A DNA stretch of 64,000 nucleotides, taken from Anoplopoma fimbria. Its lineage: Eukaryota > Chordata > Actinopteri > Perciformes > Anoplopomatidae. The stretch spans positions 20,509,351-20,573,350 of the forward strand of contig NC_072458.1 in the NCBI RefSeq assembly GCF_027596085.1, read 5' to 3'. Below, one piece after another: positions 4,694-59,200 of the stretch; position 1 is the first letter of the stretch; every line of letters starts with the position of its first letter. The translations under genes were made by a program, and so were the position numbers. The notes under the pieces are model-generated. The model worked only from the letters and a program-made list of their open reading frames with translations, was not told the origin of the DNA and made no database searches.

Positions 4694-6283
4694 CAGTGGG
4701 GGAAATAATTATTTGATCCCTTGCCGATTTTGTAAGTTTGCCCACTGACAAAGAAATGAATGATCTATAATTGTTATGGTAGGTTTATTTTAACAGTGAG
4801 AGAAAATCACATCATATAAAAGTTATAAATTGATTTGCATTTGATTGAGTGAAATAAGTATTTGAGCCCCTACCAACCAGCAAGAATTCTGGCTCCCACA
4901 GGCCGGTTAGATCAGTCCTTTCACTTTAAGAAAGTACTCTGAATCTCAACTTGTTACCTGTATGAAAGACTTCTGTCTCAATTCATTACCTGTATAAAAG
5001 ACACCTGTCCACAGAATCAATCAATCAGATTCCAACCTCTCCACCATGGGCAAGACCAAAGAGCTGTCTAAGGACGTCAGGGAAAAGACTGTAGACCTGC
5101 ACAAGGCTGGAATGGGCTACAAGACCATCGGAAAGCAGCTTGGTGAGAAGGAGACAACTGTTGGTGCGATTATTCGGAAATGGAAGAAACACAAAATGAC
5201 CATCAATCGCCCTCGGTCTGGGGCTCCACGCAAGATCTGGCCTCGTGGGGTATCGATGATCATGAGAAAGGTGAGGGATCAGCCCAGAACTACACGGGAG
5301 GAACTTGTTAATGATCTCAAGACAGCTGGGACCACAGTCACCAAGAAAACCATTGGTAACACACTACACCGTAATGGATTAAAATCCTGCAGCGCCTGCA
5401 AGGTCCCCCTGCTCAAGAAGGCACATGTACAGGCCCGTCTGAAGTTTGCCAATGAACACCTGAATGATTCAGAGAAGGCTTGGGAGAAGGTAATGTGGTC
5501 AGATGAGACTAAAATCGAGCTATTTGGCATCAACTTGACTCGCCGTGTTTGGAGGAAGAGAAATGCTGATTACAACCCCAAGAACACCATCCCCACCGCC
5601 AAGCATGGAGGTGGAAACATTATGCTTTGGGGGTGTTTCTCTGCTAAGGGGACAGGACGACTTCACCGCATCCAGGGGAGGATGGACGGGGCCATGTACC
5701 GTGAAATCCTGGGCGACAACCTCCTTCCCTCAGCCAGGACACTGAAAATGGGTCATTGATGGGTCTTCCAGCACGACAATGACCCAAAACATACGGCCAA
5801 GGCAACAAAGGAGTGGCTCAAGAAGAAGCACATTAAGGTCATGGAGTGGCCTAGCCAGTCTCCGGACCTTAATCCCATAGAAAATCTGTGGAGGGAGCTG
5901 AAGCTTAGAGTTGCCAAGCGACAGCCTCGAAACCTTCAGGATTTGGAGAAGATCTGCAAAGAGGAGTGGACCAAAATCCCTCCTGAGATGTGCGCAAACC
6001 TGGTGACCAACTACAAGAAGCGTCTGACCTCTGAGCTTGCCAACAACGGTTCTCCACCAAGTACTGAGTCATGTTTTGTTAGGGGATCAAATACTTATTT
6101 CACTCGATCAAATGCAAATCAATTTATAACTTTTATATAATGTGATTTTCTGGATTTTATTTTTGATATTCTGTCTCTCAATGTTAAAATAAACCTACCA
6201 TAACAATTATAGATCGTTCATTTCTTTTTCAGTGGGCAAACTTACAAAATCGGCAAGGGATCAAATAATTATTTCCCCCACTG
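4694..6283 (+). mobile_element. Tc1-like DNA transposon, IR/DR type, nearly full length
   Basis: A 1590 bp element is flanked by TA on both sides (4692-4693 and 6284-6285), the Tc1/mariner target duplication. The termini are inverted repeats beginning CAGTGGGGGAAATAATTATT. The outermost 106 bp or so differ at only a few positions, and homology continues inward to about 4870 on the left and 6085 on the right, with about 28 bp missing on the left. Inside each arm the motif GAAATAA(T/G)TATTTGA(T/G)CCC occurs twice (for example 4703-4721 and 4851-4869), the IR/DR layout of Sleeping Beauty-like elements. It sits at the right edge of a TA/CA microsatellite. The low divergence between arms suggests fairly recent insertion. 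Confidence 0.95.
5046..6140 (+). pseudogene. Tc1 transposase with one in-frame stop
   Basis: The frame is open from the ATG at 5046 to the stop at 6138-6140 except for TGA at 5757-5759, giving 364 codons in all, slightly longer than a typical Tc1 transposase (about 340 aa). The N-terminal half is the paired-like helix-turn-helix DNA-binding region, with a basic stretch ([10 protein letters not shown]). The DDE catalytic triad is visible: first Asp in [12 protein letters not shown], second in [11 protein letters not shown] just after the stop, and Glu in [15 protein letters not shown]. The stop follows MGH, where family members usually have Arg, so a CGA-to-TGA change at a CpG is the simplest explanation. 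No frameshift is seen. A short product would lack the second and third catalytic residues, so this copy should not be autonomous. Confidence 0.92.
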
Positions 6284-22333: not shown

Positions 22334-22650
22334 CATGGCTACTGGGGACCAACTTTTTAATCATCACTGGTGGGGACCACCCTTTCTAGAGGTGCTAGAG
22401 GTGTGAAAAAAATTCAGCACACTCACTACTGTTTAGTTAGCCTATACATGCCTTAAAACCTGCAAATTTCCATTAAAATGTTTTCCCCATCATATATGGG
22501 GACCACTGAAAAATCAAGTCAATGTGTTGATAGGGGACCGAATTTGCATGAATTTGCAAAGAATTTACATAATTCACACCTTCATACTTGACTTTTTGGG
22601 GACCATACTGGTCCCCAAAAAGTCATGTCCATCGTTATTATTATCAGTTA
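22334..22650. repeat. GGGGACC-rich repeat with hairpin
   Basis: GGGGACC or its complement occurs several times (22345, 22373, 22498, 22599, 22610). At 22589-22625 two perfect 17-nt arms (TGACTTTTTGGGGACCA and its complement) are separated by three bases. Related GGGGACC blocks lie in introns of the neighbouring minus-strand gene at 27870-27890 and 28360-28450. Confidence 0.6.
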
Positions 22651-22929
22651 TTATCATTAAAAAAATCTTAAATTTACTTTTGATTTTAATATGCCATACT
22701 CAAACCATAAATTAGTACATTTAATCAACTAAAAACCGCAAGGACACATCAGGAGGACAAAAAATGGAAGAGGTGCCATGTAGGAGAGTCAGGCATCTCA
22801 TCAGTCACTTCCCTGAAAAAAAAAAACTACTGTGCAACCTTTCACTTGACGCAAGAACCTTGTACCTCACAACTGGCATGATGGTGCGTGGTCCACTGCA
22901 AAGATGCTTCCAAGGTTGTACAAAAAAGC

Positions 22930-23300
22930 AAGAAGGCAGCTGTTCGCAACAACCACAGCCTCATGGCCATCACCACATTGAAGCTGTTGGATGAAGGACT
23001 TGAAGCAAGGGAATTCATGACAGTAAGACGCTGCTTCAAATGTTACATAATTGTAGAGTCATAATGTCAATTAGTGATACTATCTTATTAGAACCAATAA
23101 TAGTTGGACCTAACAAATAAGACTGTCTTGCAGGGCTTAGAGAGCAAGGAGGAGCTACTGGGCTTAGAGAGCAAGGAGGAGGTACTGGAGGCTCCAGGAA
23201 AAGATGGAGCCACGTCAAGTAACCAATGGTTGTACCTTTTTGTTTGTCATAAAATAAAATACTTAAATCTTTTCTGTCCTAATTCTTTATCTGCATTTCC
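22930..23300 (+). other. Possible 3' end of an unknown plus-strand spliced gene
   Basis: Two open segments can be joined by good splice sites: one ending at 23022 (ACA|gtaagac) and one starting at 23134 after ttgcag, a 111 bp intron with matching phase. The first reads through LMAITTLKLLDEGLEAREF, the second opens with a perfectly placed 27-bp tandem repeat (23134-23160, 23161-23187) encoding nearly identical nine-residue units GLESKEELL and GLESKEEVL. AATAAA lies at 23253-23258. I do not recognise the protein, and upstream exons are not visible; it may be a remnant or chance. Confidence 0.22.
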
Positions 23301-23618
23301 GTCCACTCTTTTAAGCGCTGTATAATGGCAATAGCACAGAATAATAATACAGTAGTATTTAGCACATAATGACCTCTTCATGTGATATTGCTTCAAACCA
23401 TCATTGAGTGATGTAGTTCTTTGTAATGACTATCAATAAGGACCAACTCCAGATCAATTGAAATAATTGTCACTGTTTAATAAACAGATGGCCTGCCACG
23501 TTGGCCCCAACTTTAAGCTTTCAAGTATCAAGCTAAGAAAAACAGTGAAAATAACCATAACATAAGACATAAGCAAAGCACTGCTCACAAAACTAGCAGA
23601 ATCAGCCTTTTTTAAACA

Positions 23619-25393
23619 TTAGGAATGCTGGACTTTCTTTTTGTACGCTGTGATGCGGTTGTATACATAATATTTTAACATTTGCCAATCCCGATTATTG
23701 AGAGCTGCTGGCTCAGCTCTTAGACACTTTTCACAGTCTCTCTTTGAAGGGACGATGCATGAAGTGATGAACCGCTTCATATGCTTTTCAACGGCTTTTA
23801 CCTCTTCGTCCTGCCATGGTTTTCTTTTCCTGGGAGCTTTACCTGTGAGTGGGTGAAAAAAATGTCAACACATAGACCTTACACTTATGTAGTACATATC
23901 TTGTTTACCTGACCACACAAAGGACTGTACATGGTTCAGTCACCATTTCACACAAGATCATCGATGTTCAGAGATTATTACTGTGTTCTGGCACCCAGTG
24001 ATTTATGCCACCATGGAACATCACCAGACCCATTAGCTTTAAGCAGTGGCACTGCGAGCGTACTGCTGTTGCAATTCACATTTGAGTTGATCTGATTTGT
24101 AATGAAAAAAAAAAGATTTAAATCACCTTTGACAGACATCACAGCTGTGAGCCGGTCATCATCTCCAGAAAGTGGCTTGCTCCTCTTGCTCACTGATGGG
24201 ACTGCATTCCTCACCTCTGCTGATGATTCTATGAAATAGATGAATGATATATTTGTTAGATATACAGACAAGGAAACAAACATGAGAGGAAATGCCTTTG
24301 TGCAGCGGGACTCATTGTATGCTTGATGAGATTGAAAGATGTGGACTTAATTTCTGATGTTGTAATTTCTCTATTATTTAAGTCACATCTTATCCCTTTC
24401 AATCTCTCCTTTAAGCCACGTTCCCACTCGCGGTATTGGCTCTACTCGCTTTTGGAAGCTGGTACCTTTTGGGGGGACAGTTTCCACTGCAAAAATAGTA
24501 CCCCCTGGATGACGCACAGGACTTCCATAAAGCTGCTGGTCCACTTGCTAGATATGAGTGGAGTCATCCAGCCTTTCTGTCGTTTCGCAAGTGAGCAACA
24601 TGAAGGTTTGTAGCTCCCCCAAAGAGCATGGCGTGCCCTTTTTGGCTGCTGCAACTGACGCCTAGACACTTTTACCCCGTGCGTGGTTATTGTCTGTGAC
24701 AAAACTCGGAACCAATCAGTGTCTGCAATGTGTCGAGGTCACTTTTTATAAAGTACGAGGCTGCTTTTGTGGAAACCTGAAGGAGCAGGTAAAAAAAAAA
24801 AAAAAAAAAAAAAAGTACATCCAGGTACCAGTAGGGCTGGGCAATTAATCGAAAATGGACCCTCGATCTCGATTCAGGGACACGTCGATGTTCAGAATTA
24901 CAGAACCAGCAGTATCAGATATTTTTCACTGTCTACCCAGCCATTGTTTAATGCATTCAGGCTTACAGTTACAGTGGCCAAAGCTATATTCACCTTTATG
25001 ATAGTTGGGCTGCTGTTTTCTGATGAAGAGAAGGCCATGTCTGAGATATTTTTTGTAATTTTCTGGTGTCCATTGTACTTATTCTGCTAAAATCAAAGAA
25101 GGAATTAAAAAAAACAACCTTCAACAGGTGTTGCGGCTCCGACACGGTCATCTTCTGCTGCTGATGGTGTATCTCTCTTGCGTGTTGGTGGGGGCCTTCT
25201 TCCTCTGTCAGTGGGGGCCTTCTTCTTCTGTCAGTGGAAGAGTCTCTTCTGCCAAAGACAAAGATTACAGGACATTGAGAAACACACACAGTAAACACTT
25301 CTTTTGAGATAAATGAATATATACCTTGAGATGAATAGTGTCGTCCCCTGGTTTTAGCTGTCTCATCAGTCTCAACAGGACAAATGACCATGT
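23619..25393 (-). CDS. 3' exons of the SET-recombinase gene with conserved C-terminal domain
   Basis: Four exons follow the recombinase. 25325-25393 joins in phase (DMVICPVETDET...). 25119-25248 contains a 23-bp tandem duplication and does not keep the frame. 24127-24228 encodes a Ser/Lys-rich linker ending GDDDRLTAVMSVKG. The last exon (23619-23842) gives KRKPWQDEEVKAVEKHMKRF, then CEKCLRAEPAALNNRDWQML and ends VQHS-stop. Its Trp/acidic start and Cys-x2-Cys-rich helix resemble the C-terminal module I associate with this fish recombinase family, possibly Myb-like. The 890-bp intron between the second and third of these exons has taken up a MITE (about 24415-24832). Confidence 0.6.
24415..24832. 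mobile_element. MITE in an intron, GGTACC-type, plus hAT-like fragment
   Basis: The segment starts CCACGTTCCCACTCGC and contains GGTACCTTTTGGGGGGACAG and CACTGCAAAAATAGTACC near the left, ending GGTACCAGTAGGGCTGGGC on the right after a poly-A run (24790-24812). These are hallmarks of a common fish MITE family. The adjoining TAGGGCTGGGCAATTAATCG (from 24832) resembles the terminus of hAT-like elements. There is no coding capacity. Ends are approximate. Confidence 0.5.
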
Positions 25394-25473
25394 CTAGAGG
25401 AGATATAAAAAACTTGATTAGCAAATATAAACAAAAGCATGATGGACAAAAGAAAAATGACAAAACAACATAC

Positions 25474-26512
25474 CATCTGGCCCTATTGTGATTTCATCCA
25501 GGTTTTGGCCATGGAACTCAGCCAATCTTCCTTGCTCAAGGGCCATGAGAAGCTTGCTAACCTTGGCAAGCTGCAGTGTTTTCTCAGGTAGTCGATAAAA
25601 CTCACGATGGACTCTAATGTCATGCCCAAGAAAGTTAGCCAACTGGTCCATCTCTGTATCCGTCATGTTGAGAACCGTTGAGAGTGTTGCAGCATGTTTC
25701 CGCAGCCTGGTGGAGGTCAGTGCCTTGGGACACTTTGCACCACATGCTACTGCAAAAGCACGGAGGCAGTCCGAACCACGGAGATGCGTTTTAGCAGCTG
25801 GCCTTGCAAACATGTAGCAATTCTCTTTGAGTACCTCACAAGCCTCTCTCTCTGAAACCAGGAGTTCCAGTGCACTGAGCATTTTCTGAGTCACAAGAAT
25901 AGGAACCGGTCTACCTCTTTTTCCCCTGATCACAATCCTTGTGAAATGTTTGCAGAGTCTTTTCTCTACTTCTGACAGTGCCCAGTCCAAATCCTGGTGA
26001 TGATCAGACTTGTCTCTTGACAAAAATGCAGACAAGGGCATGCTTGCCACTTCTCCTTCCCTGCGACGGTTAAAGAGGATGATCTGTGCTAAGCACACCT
26101 TTGCCAAGTCTATCCAGGTCTTTGTGGAAGGACTTTCAGAGAGTTCTTTGCAGTACTCCTCTTGCTTTTGACTGAGAAACTGGTGCAGTCTCTGCACATC
26201 TTCTGTGAACGGCATCAGAGTGGGAACATTCCACTTTGCTTCATTGAGGTTACGTAGTGCTGTCGCAGAAATCATTTCATTCCACCTTTCGTTGTGGACT
26301 TCCTGAAACTCAGTGGCATTTTTCACAAGTTCATGGTTGTTCATGATCAAGCCCTGAGCTTTTAGGAGTTTGCTGACTTTGACCAATGTATGGCCAATTT
26401 TCTTGGCAAGTGATGGTATTGTGAATTTGTGAGAATCACTGTCATAGCCACAAGTCACCTTGACAGCTTTGATCACCTGCAAGTAATTCTTTGGATTTAT
26501 GAAATCCTCCAC
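25474..26512 (-). CDS. Tyrosine recombinase/integrase catalytic domain
   Basis: The frame resumes in front of VEDFINPKNY and is open to the donor at 25474 (GATG|gtatgt). Counting from 26512, the catalytic residues of the tyrosine-recombinase fold are present and well spaced: Arg151 in FNRRREGEVASM, Lys198 in RGKRGRPVPIL, Arg271 in TSTRLRKHAATL, His297 in FLGHDIRVHREF and the nucleophile Tyr306 nine residues later. The first His of the usual HxxR box is Thr268. Residues 1-130 look like the helical core-binding domain. Such enzymes cut and rejoin DNA through a 3'-phosphotyrosine, with no DNA synthesis. No reverse transcriptase, GIY-YIG or telomerase-like partner is nearby, which argues against DIRS or Ngaro elements and leaves a Crypton-like element or a domesticated host gene. 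The domain itself is unbroken. Confidence 0.82.
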
Positions 26513-26517
26513 TGTTT

Positions 26518-27501
26518 TTAAGGGGTAACTTTTCTGGCATTATGAACCAGTCTTCCCATTTCTTGCATTTTGTCACGCACACACTGTTGATTCTTGGCTG
26601 ACATCCCACCCTTGTTCAACAGGTGCTGCCCAACATGGATGATGACATTGTCATTTTTCACAGCATCAGTGATCGGATCAGCAACCATGGCACTGATAAC
26701 TCCCCACATCTGTTTCCCGATGTGTGATGGCACAGGCTGCATGAATGTACACATAGACTGAACACGATTTTTTCCTGGTTTGACAGGTATCGATGAAGGC
26801 TTAAGTTTGCAAATTCGCATATGTCGCCACAGGACTTTTCGTGTGAAAAGAGCTTGGCAGTATGCACAATGCATGAAATCCTTCCCCTGTGCATCTTTAT
26901 TCGGGCGTTTAAATGGAACCAACTCTCCTCTCCCTGACTCCAGCACAGCAGCGTTGTGGGCATAGTTGCCTCTGTTGCGAATATAGTCAAGCAGTTTTCT
27001 TCTCTCCAAGGAACCCTTTGGTAAACTTATAGCTTGAGCCACATCAACTTTATCGTGGTGTGCACGTTCTAGATGTCTGGCCATTTTTGCATTTGCTTTT
27101 TTGCAATATAAGCAATACTGTCGTTTGTTGTAAACTCTTTTTCCATGCCTCTTTTGTGAAGCTTGCACAAGTATGGTGTCAGTTGCATCTTGACTTGAGC
27201 AGGGTTCTTCGTCTGTACTGACATCACATGTACTGATGTTTGTTCTCAAGTTTTCAAGGTCTGGTGTCGTGGAGTCACCTACTGTTGTGGAGTCACCTAC
27301 TGTTGTGGAGTCACATACTGGAGTCACCACTTCAGAGTCAGAAAATAATTCACCCACTGGCCACCTTTGTTTCCTTTCAGTTGTTGAAATGCTGACATCA
27401 CTTTCGTCACTTTCAGACGTGGAATCTGGCACATACTCATCGCCACTCTCTGATGTAGAGTCGTATAACTCATTCAAGTCTTCAAAATCTGTGTTTATCA
27501 T
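26518..27501 (-). CDS. Acidic N-terminal segment with two zinc knuckles (first part of large exon)
   Basis: This 327-residue frame opens directly after a tttattttcag acceptor. Residues 1-110 are Ser/Asp/Glu-rich, with a six-residue tandem repeat DSTTVG near 64-80. Two zinc-binding modules follow: C130-x2-C133-x9-H143-x4-H148 in YCLYCKKANAKMARHLERAH, and C212-x2-C215-x11-H227-x3-C231 in CAYCQALFTRKVLWRHMRIC. A conserved helical region continues to about 327 and should lead without break into the recombinase. Instead TAA occurs after ARKVTP. The required length of the exon and the family-like sequence on both sides show that one base is missing at about 26518-26522. The fingers probably bind DNA or RNA; no partner can be inferred. 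Confidence 0.75.
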   Translation of the reverse strand: MINTDFEDLNELYDSTSESGDEYVPDSTSESDESDVSISTTERKQRWPVGELFSDSEVVTPVCDSTTVGDSTTVGDSTTPDLENLRTNISTCDVSTDEEPCSSQDATDTILVQASQKRHGKRVYNKRQYCLYCKKANAKMARHLERAHHDKVDVAQAISLPKGSLERRKLLDYIRNRGNYAHNAAVLESGRGELVPFKRPNKDAQGKDFMHCAYCQALFTRKVLWRHMRICKLKPSSIPVKPGKNRVQSMCTFMQPVPSHIGKQMWGVISAMVADPITDAVKNDNVIIHVGQHLLNKGGMSAKNQQCVRDKMQEMGRLVHNARKVTP

Positions 27502-27792
27502 CTGAAAATAAATTCATTAACTTAGAGGATGGATCGATAGTTGACATTATTGGACACCCAATTCACAGTTTAAACATTGTGACATTAGGTGCATCGTCAT
27601 ATGACATTTTAATCAGTTTGCCACTGATCCACCAACATAATTGAGTACTTACAATGATACTTTTTGTCCGTCTAAGTCTTGGGACAGCAATCTCGTCTTC
27701 ATTTTGGAATTTTGTCTCACTCTGTGAAGAACAGCAATACAACACACACACACTGAAAAAAATGTAGATATTTGTGAAGAATATTGATTAAC

Positions 27793-28843
27793 CAGCATCT
27801 GCTGTCACACTAATAGGATGAGCAAGCTTCATGGGGGAATGGCAAACACAGTCACCACTTGTCACCACTTGTCGGGACCGACATCCAGAGCTAGTCTTCA
27901 CACAACCTGCCAACTCACAACAATAGAAAAGTGTGTGTCCAGCAGCTTGAATGAAGCCAGAAACAACAGGAGGTGACTCTGGATGTCTCTATGAATTCAT
28001 CTTAAGTGCTCCACATGATGTACCTGTTCTATGGACATGACGTCATGGGTGTCATCATCCACCTGTGGCCCTGGAGGGACATCAGCATGGGAGCCATCCA
28101 CACGAGGGTCATGTTGAGCATGTGTGCTTGCCTGCAAGTATTTCACATGGAAATTATTGCAATTTATGAGCCATAATCATCATTTTCAGGTCAAGGGTAC
28201 AGCTATGAATTTGGATGTGTGGATACAGAGAAACCAAATTTGAAAGACATTAAGTTGAACTGCAGAGATTCTTCCTGTTTCATTAAGCAGCATCTGCTGT
28301 CACACCAACTGAATGAACAAGCTTCATGGGGACATGTCAAACACAGTCAAGTCACCACTTGTGGGGACCGGGTGTCCAGACTCAAAGAGCTACTCAAAAC
28401 CTCACACAACCTGCAAACTCAAACTGGTAAGAAAGTGTGTTGTGGGGACCCCGTACATGTCCCAGATTAGAGGGATTTTTTGTCAATTGTAAAATCTCCA
28501 CAAAGTTAAAATTGTGTCCTGATCATCCATTTAACATTAGCCATCAACACATCTCATACTAAAATGTCTAACAGTTCAGATTCACATTCAAGTCCATGAT
28601 TATACACTTCTCCATGTCTGTCCACCAGCTTAAATGAAGCTAAAAAACAACAAGAGGTGACTCTGGATGTCTCTATGAATTCATCTTAAGTGCTCCACAT
28701 GATGTACCTGTTGATTGGATGTGGAGTCATCATCCACCTGTGGCCCTGGAGGGACATCAGCATGGGAGCCATCCACACGAGGGTCATGTTTAGCATGTGT
28801 GCTTGCCTGCAAGTATTTCACATGGAAATTGTTGCAATTCATG
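27793..28843 (-). repeat. Tandem duplication carrying a linker exon
   Basis: Segments 27793-28170 and 28288-28843 are copies of one unit; the second has about 170 bp of extra intron sequence. Each holds one exon in phase 0: 28708-28806 (33 codons) and 28024-28131 (36 codons), both with ttgcag|GCAAGC acceptors and CAG|gtacatc donors. The peptides share AS-THA-HDPRVDGSHADV and PPGPQVDDD, then diverge at the end. Introns are also duplicated, including GGGGACC or GGGACC blocks. The duplication keeps the reading frame, so the linker between SET and zinc knuckles can grow by whole units. Confidence 0.85.
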
Positions 28844-28933
28844 AAATACAATTGATCATTTTTAAAGTTCAGACACATAGTATAAAATTATTCTGGATTT
28901 GAAAATTGTGCAGAACCACAATTTTCCACATAC

Positions 28934-29729
28934 TTGACTTCTCCATGGGCAGTCATCCCCTCCGTAGTCGTAGGTGATTTCATCCCCCTCATTTATGTCT
29001 TTGATAGCAAATAGGCACAAGTGCGGCATCCCATCCACATCAATCTTTTTCATTCGGCAGTTAGGGCCTTTGTGCTGATCATTAAGAAGTCGCCCCAATG
29101 ATTCATCCTCTCTTGAGGCATCAATGCTTAGAAGAAAAGAAGGTATTGCGAGTAAACCCATTTTATATTAATACATGCCGTTCCTCTACATAGAAATCAA
29201 ATCAACATAAATGTTAACATATGGTACAATTTGATTAATTAATAATTCTCCTAGTTGTTCTTCTGAATATACGGAGTTTGGTGTTTTGTGTGCCAAGTAT
29301 AGTTTAATTGCAACTTACCACCAAAATTTCCCTCGCCACTTGAAAGCAAAAAAAAAGGCAGTACACGATGGGTGGAAAACCTTTCGTCTTCTTTGGGCTT
29401 CAACATCATTGATCATATCACCCCGGTACTCCACTACAAATTCTCCTCTGGGAAATTTGCTTGTGGCAAATACTCCTCGTCCTTTTAAAGAAAAAAACAA
29501 CAACAAAAAAAACAATAGATATGTTCAATAGTACAGGAAAGAGCATCAACATAACTTATCAATTACTTGGAGAAAATAAAAAGCAAAAAACACATCAATG
29601 TTTTACCTTTCTCTGCATTTATGTATTTAACTTCCAGTTTTGAAGTTTTGTCCGTCTTTGAGAGAACATGACGGATGGCATCACTTGTCGGACTGAGCCT
29701 TGGTGGCATTTGAAACTGCAGACATACAT
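28934..29729 (-). CDS. SET-domain exons, KMT5A-like histone methyltransferase module
   Basis: Three exons encode a SET domain resembling KMT5A (SETD8), which monomethylates histone H4 Lys20 using S-adenosylmethionine. Exon 1 (29607-29729) ends with LEVKYINAEK. Exon 2 (29319-29481) gives GRGVFATSKFPRGEFVVEYR, the SET-N motif. Exon 3 (28934-29126) supplies CIDASREDESLGRLLND, PHLCLFAIKDINEGDEITYD and the YDYG motif with its catalytic-pocket Tyr. Joins at 29607/29481 (K-G-R-G) and 29319/29126 (W-C-I-D) restore the expected residues exactly. The cofactor-binding NHS motif of KMT5A is replaced by ND-QH, with GPNC following. The exons are intact and continue in phase 0 into the linker. This is not the host kmt5a gene, whose N-terminal part is absent. 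Confidence 0.82.
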
Positions 29730-30071
29730 CTAAAAAAAAAAATATAGCGTTATTGACAACAATACATTTCTTATTGACAACTGATAAAAAACGGGGACCA
29801 CAAATTTCAACAACTTTGAGAAAATCTCTGTCCAATCTGCCAAACTTAGAAAACTATCATTAATCTAGTTGTTGCTACTGACATTGTGTCAAACTGAACC
29901 AGAACAGGTAAAAAGCTACTACAGGTAAAATGAAAGCACCTCACATTTCAAAATGTAACTTAATTTGACAAAAATGTAATGCCAACTCTGTTTGGTAGTC
30001 CAATATTACTCACTTAAGTAATGTTGGTTCATTAATAATACAAATTAGTGTCTATACGCAAAGTCAAAGTC

Positions 30072-56282: not shown

Positions 56283-59200
56283 TCAGAGAAGGGGCGTTTC
56301 TAGGGGCAATTGATCCAGGTCAAAAGAGGAGAAGAGGTCAGTGATGCCCTCATCCTCCGTCAGGCTCAGGAGGTAATCCTCCCCACCAACAGAGAAAGCT
56401 AGAGGGGGAGTGAGGGTGACAAAGCTCTGTTGATCTCCAGAGTGGGGCTGGAGGGAGGTGTGCATGGGTGAGACGGGGGTGACAGTGACTGGTGATGGGT
56501 GCTGTGTCGGCTCGGACGGCGGGCTTGAGATAAAATCAACTCCAGAAGTACGGATCGCATTGTCTAGAAAGATAATGGGAGTTTGGATAAGGAGACACGG
56601 GGGTTAGAAAAATGATGAGCGGTGGAAGTTTAAAAAAAACAAAAAAAAACAAAGCAAATGTGAGCCAAGAATCTAAAAAGTAAATACAGTCTCTTATTAA
56701 AAAAGAAAAAGAAAAAAAAAGGTTCCTGTGTGGGAAAAGGCCCCCATGGGTATTTGCCTCCTCGCTGAGGCAACAAAGTACCATTTTACAAGAGCACCCA
56801 GATGGATCATGGGACGTTTAAGTGCAAGACTCACCTTTGGAAGACACCTGGACGAAGGACGAGGAAGGCACGAGGGGGGTGGCGTTGTTCCTATTGGCTG
56901 AGGAGTTTAAGTGGCTTCCGTTGGCACCGGAGCCGTCTGTGGCTTCCATCGGCATGGGGTCATCGGAGCAGAGGAACGCCTCGATGGGCCCCCGGGTGCT
57001 GCTGAGGTGGACCTGGAGGCTCTGAGCGGAGCGGAAGTAGACAGAGTGCTTTTATTAAGTGGCCTCTGAACACGAGCGGAGAGCAGACACTTACAGTGAA
57101 CGGTGTCTTGGGAGGATGTGGCAAGAGCGCAAGTTCGTTTAAGCCGATGCTGCATCAGTAAAAAACAAGGCAATTAAGCATCTTGTATTGTTTTACTGGG
57201 GATTAAAGGCTAAATATTCAGGCCACATCCTCACTACGATGTTTTCACTCCTGTTAAAAGGAGATTGAAAACGCTTATTCAGGCGGTTTTCATTTTAAAA
57301 CTCGGGGGAAGCGTTTAAGTGTGGACAGGGACAAACGGAGACCTTTCAAAACGCTGACGCAGACGCCCTATTGGACCTTTTCTGGAAGAAAAAAAAAGAA
57401 AAAAGAACTGCCTCAATCAAGTGGTTAATTCGACTTGGATGACAAACTGCAAGCATTGCTGACCTTGTTGTCTATGCAATCATGTTACGCAGTTAAATTC
57501 TACTACTGCCTACAAATGAGTGCGCTTAGTGCTTAGTGGAGCACTTTGTGACAATTCCAATATCCGATGGCTATATTAGCCTTGGTCATGTGATAAGCTC
57601 CGTCAATACTACTCCGCCTGAATAAGGCACATTTCTGAAACTGTGCTAAACGGCTCCTCTGGATGGAGATTGGTTATTGTTTTAAGACACACTTTTAAAA
57701 CAAACTAGTAGTAGTGTGGATTAGGCTCGAGTTTCATTGCAAAAAAAAAAAAGATACGATTGACTGATTATGTTGAAACATGTACCTCTTCTGGGTGCGG
57801 CACCTCCAGTTTTGTCTCTACAGGCGCTTTGATCACAATCACAGTCTGTTCTTTCAGGCTGGGAATCCTTTGGACATCCTCGTAAGTCAAATAGGCGAAC
57901 GTGATCCTCGGGGTTAAGGAATATTAAATCAGTGTGGACGGGTTTGTGTACAGCAAACACTCAATAACAAAACCCAAAATACCAATCACATATGGCATTG
58001 ATCCCTCCAATGCCTTCTAAATCAAAACTCCGTGTTTGGCTTGGCCTTTAGACATAACGCCAATGACGCTTTTAACACAATGCTTGGGGCACACCCATTT
58101 GACGCAAGCGAATCTGGGTCACAACAACAGAACAAAATGAAGCTGATATAACAAATCAGAAAGGATATCTTTGAGTGTTCTGGTTCCCGCACAGCTGGTG
58201 AACCTGCTTTGTGCAGCTTTGGATCAACTCGTCCAGCCTCCTCTCCTCCTCCACCAGAGCTTTCAGCTCCTGATCCATGTGCACGTTCACATCACCGCCC
58301 CTGTGCACACACACAGGATTAAAACCTCAACAGACACCACTAAAGACATCGAAATGAAATGATCACGAGGCAATTAAGAATAAAACATTATGTTAACTGT
58401 GCATAGAATAATACAGTCAACTAATTCAGCATTTGTTGTATGCACCAGCAGCTTCAACCATTTATAAAATGAAGTAGATACTCTGTCAGTCTTTAAAAAA
58501 TACATATATAAACAATATATAGATGGGCCCTAATTGTGTTTGTCAGATATATTGAATCACTCACCAAAACACACTAACAAACCACAATGTGCATATATGT
58601 GTTGTACAACAAGCTCTTTTCTAACACACACACACACACAACCACTCATACAATCATACTTACAGCCACTCGACAAAGTTCTTCGACTTCTTTTTGATGA
58701 GTTGGATCCCCTCCAGGACGTTGGTGACGTCATAGACGCGTCTCTTTGGGGCATTGAGCTCCTGGGCGGCGAGGTTCAGGTCCAACACCCCGTCAGCAGA
58801 GCGACTCAGCATGTCAGCAAACCTCTGCGTCAGGACGCCGAGCGAGGTGTCACAGCGAGACTTCTCGAACAGGAACTTGCGCGCTATGGGATGGGAGGCG
58901 GGAGCTGGGGGGAAGAAAAATGGGTGAGGGATGAGAATGATTCCTTTTTTCCCCTCTTCTAAAATGTCATATTGTTTTGTGCCTTTTCTTATTGTACTTT
59001 CTCTAATATTTGCCATTCTTCTGTTGCCACCAAGTGTAACAAGGAGTGTGCTGCACTCTGATTTCAAAAGGTCCAATGCCATGTGACATTAGACGCTGTT
59101 ATGTCATGATAAATCCCCTTATTTTAATTTGAACCGGATACTCAGAGTGAGATTATGGGGTTTGCTCTATTTAGATCCAGTGTTTGGTGAAAGCGACATT

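What the first reader, a model, noticed from the sequence alone, without database searches (positions are those of the whole stretch)
23619..29729. A gene that joins a KMT5A-like SET domain to a tyrosine recombinase
Seen directly: SET exons, linker exons, zinc knuckles and a recombinase with Arg, Lys, Arg, His and Tyr in proper spacing lie on one strand in 6 kb, linked by GT-AG introns (76-890 nt) with matching phase. Known: tyrosine recombinases drive Crypton, DIRS and Ngaro elements; SET enzymes of the KMT5A type methylate H4K20. Inferred: one protein that could both rearrange DNA and mark the chromatin where it acts, either a mobile element bringing its own silencing or opening tool, or a domesticated gene. 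I recall similar recombinase proteins in other fish but no described function.
Basis: partly seen in the sequence, partly recalled or inferred. Interest (0 to 1): 0.88.

Follow-up and report, generated by a model that had tools for sequence, protein, structure and literature searches.

The report
Jumping gene with built-in histone methyltransferase
A predicted gene in a cod-like fish genome joins a domain resembling the histone-marking enzyme KMT5A to a tyrosine recombinase, occurs there in nearly identical whole or partial copies at four places, and is likely a mobile DNA element that would mark the chromatin it works on; carp-family relatives keep the KMT5A-like part while lacking the recombinase's key tyrosine.

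Summary
The fusion is real. Minus-strand exons at window 29709-23619 encode a KMT5A-like SET domain, a duplicated linker exon, zinc knuckles, a tyrosine recombinase (YR; R-K-R-H-Y) and a C-terminal domain; in this copy the large recombinase exon is not one open frame. The same order is predicted in one protein across ray-finned fish and in a frog (105 of 297 returned proteins hold at least 80% of both domains). It behaves like a mobile element: the window's genome holds the family at four places, 99-100% alike over the recombinase, one a second full-length copy with unrelated flanks that delimits a unit of about 7.7 kb; a second SET-YR family sits on two chromosome-size contigs at 99%; shad has five loci at 97-99.9%. 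No terminal inverted repeats or reverse transcriptase were found. A carp clade (two models named rnf214) keeps the SET residues but lacks the catalytic tyrosine: likely domestication. SET genes in transposons (HarbingerS, MuDR) and YR transposons (Crypton) are known; I found no report of the two fused. Transposition and histone methylation are untested, element ends are not resolved to the base, and KMT5A's active-site His is Asp nearly throughout. A new variant of a known kind.

The parts
22336..30068 (-). Whole unit as delimited by the second full-length copy (contig C5153): about 7.7 kb, gene on the minus strand. Ends uncertain by about 10-45 bp: three loci (window, C14 with C5102, C6145) share a further '(CA)n-TACTGGTATTC' left of this point, and a (CA)n tract begins at about 30114.
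29607..29709 (-). E1 from the start codon: pre-SET residues
   Evidence: same start in P0121 of Gadus morhua
29319..29481 (-). E2: SET domain, first half (VVEYRGD)
28934..29126 (-). E3: SET domain, second half (CIDASRE, GRLLND, EITYDYGG)
28708..28806 (-). E4: linker exon, copy 1
28024..28131 (-). E4b: linker exon, copy 2 (copies 675 bp apart)
   Evidence: (D4, 97% over 122 nt); cod protein P0121 shows four linker units
27653..27721 (-). E5: short exon (VPRLRRTKSII)
25474..27501 (-). E6: acidic region, two zinc-knuckle-like motifs and tyrosine recombinase; the frame breaks inside this exon in the window copy
25475..26536 (-). Tyrosine recombinase piece used as query (Arg159, Lys206, Arg279, His305, Tyr314)
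25325..25393 (-). E7, GT-AG, phase 1
24994..25040 (-). Candidate exon; its sequence is used, in one frame, in the Arctogadus gene model
24127..24228 (-). E9, GT-AG, phase 1
23619..23842 (-). E10: C-terminal domain (PWQDEEVKAVEKHMKRF...) and stop; helical in the model of a homologue
22344..22616 (.). Cluster of six GGGGACC sites near the left end; 9 of the window's 10 such sites lie in the unit (role as binding sites inferred)

Best explanation
It is likely a DNA transposon of about 7.7 kb whose single predicted gene encodes a KMT5A-like SET domain joined to a tyrosine recombinase. Shown: gene anatomy, near-identical copies at different places, the recombinase's catalytic residues, no reverse transcriptase and no terminal inverted repeats found. 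Inferred: the recombinase cuts and rejoins the element's ends through its tyrosine, by way of a circle as proposed for Cryptons; zinc knuckles and the C-terminal domain, perhaps at the clustered GGGGACC sites, bring the protein to the element; the tethered SET domain then methylates nucleosomes there, which would keep the element's own chromatin usable for its expression or recombination. A carp-family relative has likely been taken over by the host as a chromatin protein, since the recombinase tyrosine is gone while the SET residues stay.
For: Fusion: predicted proteins with SET and YR in 28 fish genera by my count of the 120 listed, 46-69% identity, and in the frog Ranitomeya; 105 of 297 returned proteins hold at least 80% of both domains, 95 of these 105 with all five YR residues; SET and YR distances correlate (Mantel r 0.87, 0 of 9999 permutations as high, 44 proteins; shared host history would add to this). 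Mobility: window unit against C5153: 7 substitutions in 7455 aligned bases, flanks unrelated on both sides; four loci of this family in the genome; second family on C5 and C6 at 99.3% with SET about 5.5 kb upstream of YR in each; 10 of 30 YR loci have SET upstream on the same strand (one of them re-read by hand). Alosa: five loci on five chromosome-size contigs, 97.2-99.9%. YR fold: best Foldseek hits XerA, XerD, XerH, beta-hairpin around Lys206. SET: SET8 by sequence and, for a homologue, by fold; Tyr245 and Asn298 kept in 173 of 173, Tyr334 and Tyr336 in 172. Domestication: 13 of 13 carp-clade models lack the Tyr; the 10 whose SET could be scored keep all its residues; YR/SET divergence ratio 1.14 against 0.67-0.72 in intact relatives.
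Against: Only two copies in the window's genome hold the SET exons; two other loci keep the left end but stop at internal CA-rich points, and their left junction runs about 11 bp plus (CA)n further than that of C5153, so microsatellite-linked duplication or assembly joins are not excluded for those. C14 differs from the window by 15 mismatches and 122 gap positions over 4632 columns, more than the recombinase region alone suggests. 20 of 30 YR loci showed no SET upstream, and some of the 10 linked ones look like haplotigs of each other. No empty site, circle or target core was seen. The window copy is broken, and the three other loci each carry an insertion in the same exon. The NH of KMT5A is ND in 171 of 173 and Tyr271 is Phe in 163 of 173: the SET domain may have another substrate or no activity. 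The YR model is of middling confidence (pLDDT 71), no PDB hit reaches E 0.001, VIA-align gave mostly helical bundles and no recombinase, and Pfam matched no YR family except Phage_integrase at E 0.12 in one of five homologues. Cod also has a SET-only isoform (P0121).
Confidence: 0.78

Rival explanations
1. A host gene family, domesticated long ago in fish and spread by ordinary segmental duplication rather than by its own recombinase.
For: Intron-rich gene; carp-family clade with lost tyrosine; deeply diverged relatives in the same genome with broken YR sites but open frames of 298-806 aa (L020, L044, L046).
Against: Near-identical copies on different contigs in several species while other relatives in the same genome differ by half; 179 of 203 proteins keep the full YR set; the two full-length copies end close to the gene on both sides.
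Confidence: 0.15
2. One mobile element, but SET and recombinase are made mostly as separate proteins by alternative splicing or early polyadenylation, so the fusion product is minor.
For: Cod model P0121 ends after the linker exons by reading into the intron; many short SET-only and YR-only models.
Against: Full-length models in many genera and matching splice phases. Short models may be annotation fragments.
Confidence: 0.2
3. The SET domain is a catalytically silent nucleosome-binding module that targets the recombinase.
For: ND in place of NH in 171 of 173, Tyr271 to Phe in 163 of 173.
Against: Tyr245 and Asn298 kept in 173 of 173, Tyr334 and Tyr336 in 172, Arg295 in 171; all stay in the 10 scored carp-clade models after recombinase loss.
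Confidence: 0.3
4. A YR retrotransposon (DIRS or Ngaro).
For: Tyrosine recombinase present; no DUF3504 match, as PMC3212892 reports for DIRS and Ngaro recombinases.
Against: No reverse transcriptase or RNase H among 10 further ORFs chosen from the unit; introns are kept in the copies.
Confidence: 0.03

Closest known systems
Crypton DNA transposons (Kojima and Jurka 2011, PMC3212892; passages seen)
   Same: Tyrosine recombinase as the only recombination enzyme, no RT, no terminal inverted repeats, recorded domestication of the recombinase.
   Different: No DUF3504 match at E<=1, whereas the paper reports three animal Crypton YRs matching it at 8e-12 or better; carries a SET domain, zinc knuckles and a C-terminal domain; intron-rich.
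SET-bearing DNA transposons: HarbingerS and MuDR of Phytophthora (Kojima and Jurka 2014, as cited in PMC12730594; passage seen, the 2014 reports not seen)
   Same: DNA transposon carrying a SET histone methyltransferase gene.
   Different: DDE transposase (by recall) and oomycete host; here one fused protein with a tyrosine recombinase in vertebrates.
KMT5A/SET8 (H4K20 monomethyltransferase)
   Same: Closest SET by sequence and, for a homologue, by fold; Tyr245, Asn298, Tyr334, Tyr336.
   Different: NH to ND, Tyr271 to Phe; what looks like the host kmt5a gene is separate in the same genome (L016).
SETMAR (SET fused to a mariner transposase in primates; recalled, no call)
   Same: Histone methyltransferase joined to a transposon enzyme.
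   Different: One host gene made by a single insertion and a DDE enzyme; here the joined unit itself is multi-copy.

Membership tests
Crypton | Tyrosine recombinase with R, R, H and Y | tested here: met
Crypton | No reverse transcriptase | tested here: met
   (10 further ORFs chosen from the unit, Pfam)
Crypton | No terminal inverted repeats | tested here: met
   none of 12 inverted-repeat pairs (14 nt or more) joins the two ends
Crypton | Short terminal direct repeats (fungal and stramenopile groups) | tested here: inconclusive
   junctions of the two full-length copies not resolved to the base; the paper found no terminal repeats in animal Cryptons
Crypton | Animal Crypton recombinases match DUF3504 | tested here: not met
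   no PF12012 up to E=1 in six proteins
Crypton | Moves as a circle | not testable with these tools
   needs bench or read data
DIRS/Ngaro | RT and RNase H beside the YR | tested here: not met
KMT5A | SET domain closest to KMT5A | tested here: met
   for a homologue
KMT5A | NH motif (Asn298-His299) | tested here: not met
   His to Asp in 171 of 173
KMT5A | H4K20 monomethylation | not testable with these tools
   needs an enzyme assay
SET-bearing transposons (HarbingerS, MuDR) | DDE transposase | not tested
   not searched for as such; none showed in the Pfam scans made

The most novel reading that the evidence does not exclude
A vertebrate transposon superfamily in which a single protein both recombines DNA and methylates histones, so that the element writes the chromatin state of the sites it leaves or enters, with host takeovers in which the recombinase dies and the chromatin writer stays.
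Probability: 0.35. Interest if true: 0.92.

Novelty: new variant of a known kind. Interest (0 to 1): 0.78.

Why it matters
If true, it gives a natural enzyme that couples DNA recombination to histone marking in vertebrates, a direct way to test whether transposons edit the chromatin around their own moves, and a clean before/after pair (mobile copies with intact recombinase, a carp clade without its tyrosine) for how a chromatin gene is born from an element. It also likely explains many fish gene models named 'N-lysine methyltransferase KMT5A-like', which look like pieces of this family.

Tried and rejected
Pfam and PHROGs did not name the recombinase (best Phage_integrase at E 0.12 in one protein). 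Viral contigs gave nothing. VIA-align listed mostly helical bundles and no recombinase, so the YR fold rests on Foldseek ranks (E 4.5e-3 at best), secondary structure and residues. DIRS/Ngaro rejected. I first read C5102 as a further locus; its left flank equals that of C14, so I count it as an allele or haplotig. Horizontal transfer (frog Pseudophryne among fish) was considered; support near it is weak and no host-gene yardstick was made, so I do not claim it. In the proximity count the script linked 9 of 30 YR loci to an upstream SET; I added C10:12524638 by hand because the script had picked a nearer downstream SET (SET at 12522483-12522659). A genome search for the left end was asked for six times (among them) and never answered. 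The 12-base overlap of the insert in C5153 reads by eye as an 8-bp direct repeat.

Literature: nine searches listed no paper whose title or shown abstract describes a SET-tyrosine recombinase fusion; of the two papers that held all of 'SET domain', 'tyrosine recombinase' and 'Crypton' I saw passages and they treat the terms apart. Subscription journals and Repbase Reports are not held, so it may be listed there.
Full report
What is there. On the minus strand of the window, exons 29709-29607, 29481-29319, 29126-28934, 28806-28708, 28131-28024, 27721-27653 and 27501-25474 are joined by GT-AG introns, and the first six read through 245 codons without a stop. They encode a SET domain (PF00856, 4.7e-21) whose 14 best PDB sequences are all KMT5A/SET8, a linker exon present twice (97% over 122 nt), and an exon with two zinc-knuckle-like motifs (read by eye; Pfam gave nothing above its cut-off) and a tyrosine recombinase. 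Further GT-AG exons lead to a C-terminal domain that stops at 23619; it is helical in the model of a homologue. The recombinase exon is not one open frame in this copy.

The genome. A cod (Gadus morhua) protein, LOC115558817 isoform X3, is 99% identical over the whole SET-linker query, and an Arctogadus model carries the SET start, linker, a recombinase piece and the C-terminus in one chain. I infer that the window is from a gadid. It lies on contig C10 of a 652 Mb assembly of 7151 contigs.

One protein, many species. A search with the read-through protein returned 543 proteins at E<=0.001, of which 120 were listed; by my count 28 fish genera in that list have models with both SET and YR, at 46-69% identity. 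A second search from the eel protein returned 989, 120 listed (some again), and added the frog Ranitomeya (950 aa, SET and YR) and Polypterus. Of all 297 proteins returned by three searches, 203 hold at least 80% of the YR, 173 at least 80% of the SET, and 105 both (the SET search was limited to short proteins, and many rows are isoforms of one locus). Among 44 distinct proteins with both, SET and YR distances correlate at r=0.87 (0 of 9999 permutations as high), as expected if the two parts travelled together; shared host history would add to this. These are gene models; I saw no transcript.

Active sites. YR: Arg, Lys, Arg, His and Tyr are all kept in 179 of 203. AlphaFold places Lys206 between the strands of a beta-hairpin (pLDDT 71), and Foldseek ranks XerA, XerD and XerH first, E 4.5e-3 to 6e-2, not significant alone; VIA-align did not list a recombinase. 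SET: Tyr245 and Asn298 are kept in 173 of 173, Tyr334 and Tyr336 in 172, Arg295 in 171; His299 is Asp in 171 and Tyr271 is Phe in 163. The PDB titles name Tyr245 and Tyr334 as mutated positions of SET8; the residue numbers of SET8 are otherwise by recall. Whether NH to ND leaves an active enzyme is unknown.

Mobility. Contig C5153 of the same genome carries a second copy: 7 substitutions in 7455 aligned bases, from window 22336 to about 30068, with unrelated flanks on both sides. The genome search for the YR gave 36 hits, 30 loci by my merging. The window family is at C10, C14 (C5102 shares its flank), C6145 and C5153, 99-100% alike in the YR protein, with 0-6 mismatches per 2.8-3.6 kb around it; over its longer match C14 differs by 15 mismatches and 122 gap positions in 4632 columns. 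C14/C5102 stop at window 27555 and C6145 stops in the linker region, so only C10 and C5153 hold the SET exons; the right end was found at 2 places. A second family lies on C5, C6 and C5125 at 99.3-99.8%, each with its SET exon about 5.5 kb upstream on the same strand; the SET stretches of C5 and C6 have no mismatch in 803 columns, 8 of them gaps. C5125 may be a haplotig of C6. In all, 10 of 30 YR loci have a SET upstream on the same strand within about 8 kb; 20 have none found, and the SET search is a lower bound. In Alosa sapidissima five loci on five chromosome-size contigs code for proteins 97.2-99.9% identical and a sixth for one at about 45%; Brienomyrus, Metynnis and Xyrichtys each have two contigs at 95.8-99.1%. 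No terminal inverted repeat of 14 nt or more joins the ends, and 10 further ORFs chosen from the unit show no reverse transcriptase. Six GGGGACC sites cluster at 22344-22616; 9 of 10 in the window lie in the unit.

What spoils the picture. Three loci (window, C14 with C5102, C6145) share (CA)n-TACTGGTATTC to the left of the boundary that C5153 shows, and the truncated ones end at CA-rich points. Either the true left end is a little further out, or these copies spread with a piece of flank, or repeats confused the assembly. All four loci carry damage in the recombinase exon: a frame break in the window copy, and insertions in C5153 (about 0.8 kb, 8-bp repeat by eye), C14 (about 4 kb, 10-bp repeat) and C6145 (about 1.6 kb, TTAA).

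Domestication. In the YR tree a clade of 11 rows, carp-family where named (two models named rnf214 by NCBI), is supported 100/98. These 11 and two further isoforms, 13 models, have Cys, Phe or a gap at the catalytic tyrosine; the 10 whose SET could be scored keep every SET residue checked. YR diverges faster relative to SET there (ratio 1.14, 8 proteins) than in intact relatives (0.72, 13 proteins; 0.67, 6 cypriniforms; sets chosen by me). Of 22 proteins examined for linker repeats, 17 have about 2 to 15 near-identical units; the two carp-clade proteins have none, but neither do the frog Ranitomeya, Polypterus and the shortened Arctogadus model, so this is weak. A host takeover is the simplest reading. 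Single Cys or Ser replacements of the tyrosine also occur outside the clade (P0079, P0085, P0098, P0107).

How it likely works. Recombinase chemistry at the element's ends, by way of a circle as proposed for Cryptons (PMC3212892, passages), is inferred from family knowledge. Tethered histone methylation near those ends is inferred from the SET residues only. I give the mobile SET-YR element 0.78 and actual histone methylation in the process about 0.35.

Known and new. Crypton YR transposons, and SET genes in HarbingerS and MuDR transposons of Phytophthora (cited in PMC12730594, passage seen), are known. The YR here has no DUF3504 match, which the 2011 paper reports for animal Cryptons and denies for DIRS and Ngaro; so the YR lineage is not placed. 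I found no report of the fusion in nine searches of open papers. It works like a Crypton; I do not file it as one.

Noticed in passing
window 56283-59088 (-): An E2F-family gene (DNA-binding and C-terminal activation stretches read from ORFs, name by recall) lies about 26 kb from the element.
   Followed up: no
window 4998-6140 (+): Two ORFs that read like a Tc1/mariner transposase in two pieces (by recall).
   Followed up: no
L020 (C7:18849500-18859400), L044 (C16), L041 and L046 (C10:12.52-12.53 Mb): Deeply diverged relatives (YR about 30-36% identity) with lost YR residues but open frames of 298-806 aa; L020, L041 and L046 also have a SET match upstream: candidates for older domesticated genes.
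   Followed up: partly
L012 (C14:7656800-7666700): SET exons and zinc-knuckle region of another diverged relative; no YR was detected downstream.
   Followed up: partly
C5153, C14, C6145 copies: Each of three copies carries a different DNA insertion in the same recombinase exon, flanked by short repeats of 8 bp (by eye), 10 bp and TTAA.
   Followed up: partly
linker exons, window 28024-28806; many homologues: The linker exon is multiplied: 2 in the window, 4 in a cod model, about 15 in a medaka model; units are nearly alike within a protein and differ between species.
   Followed up: partly
P0077, P0215: Frog proteins: the Pseudophryne YR sits among teleost copies, Ranitomeya has SET and YR; possible horizontal transfer, weakly supported.
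   Followed up: partly
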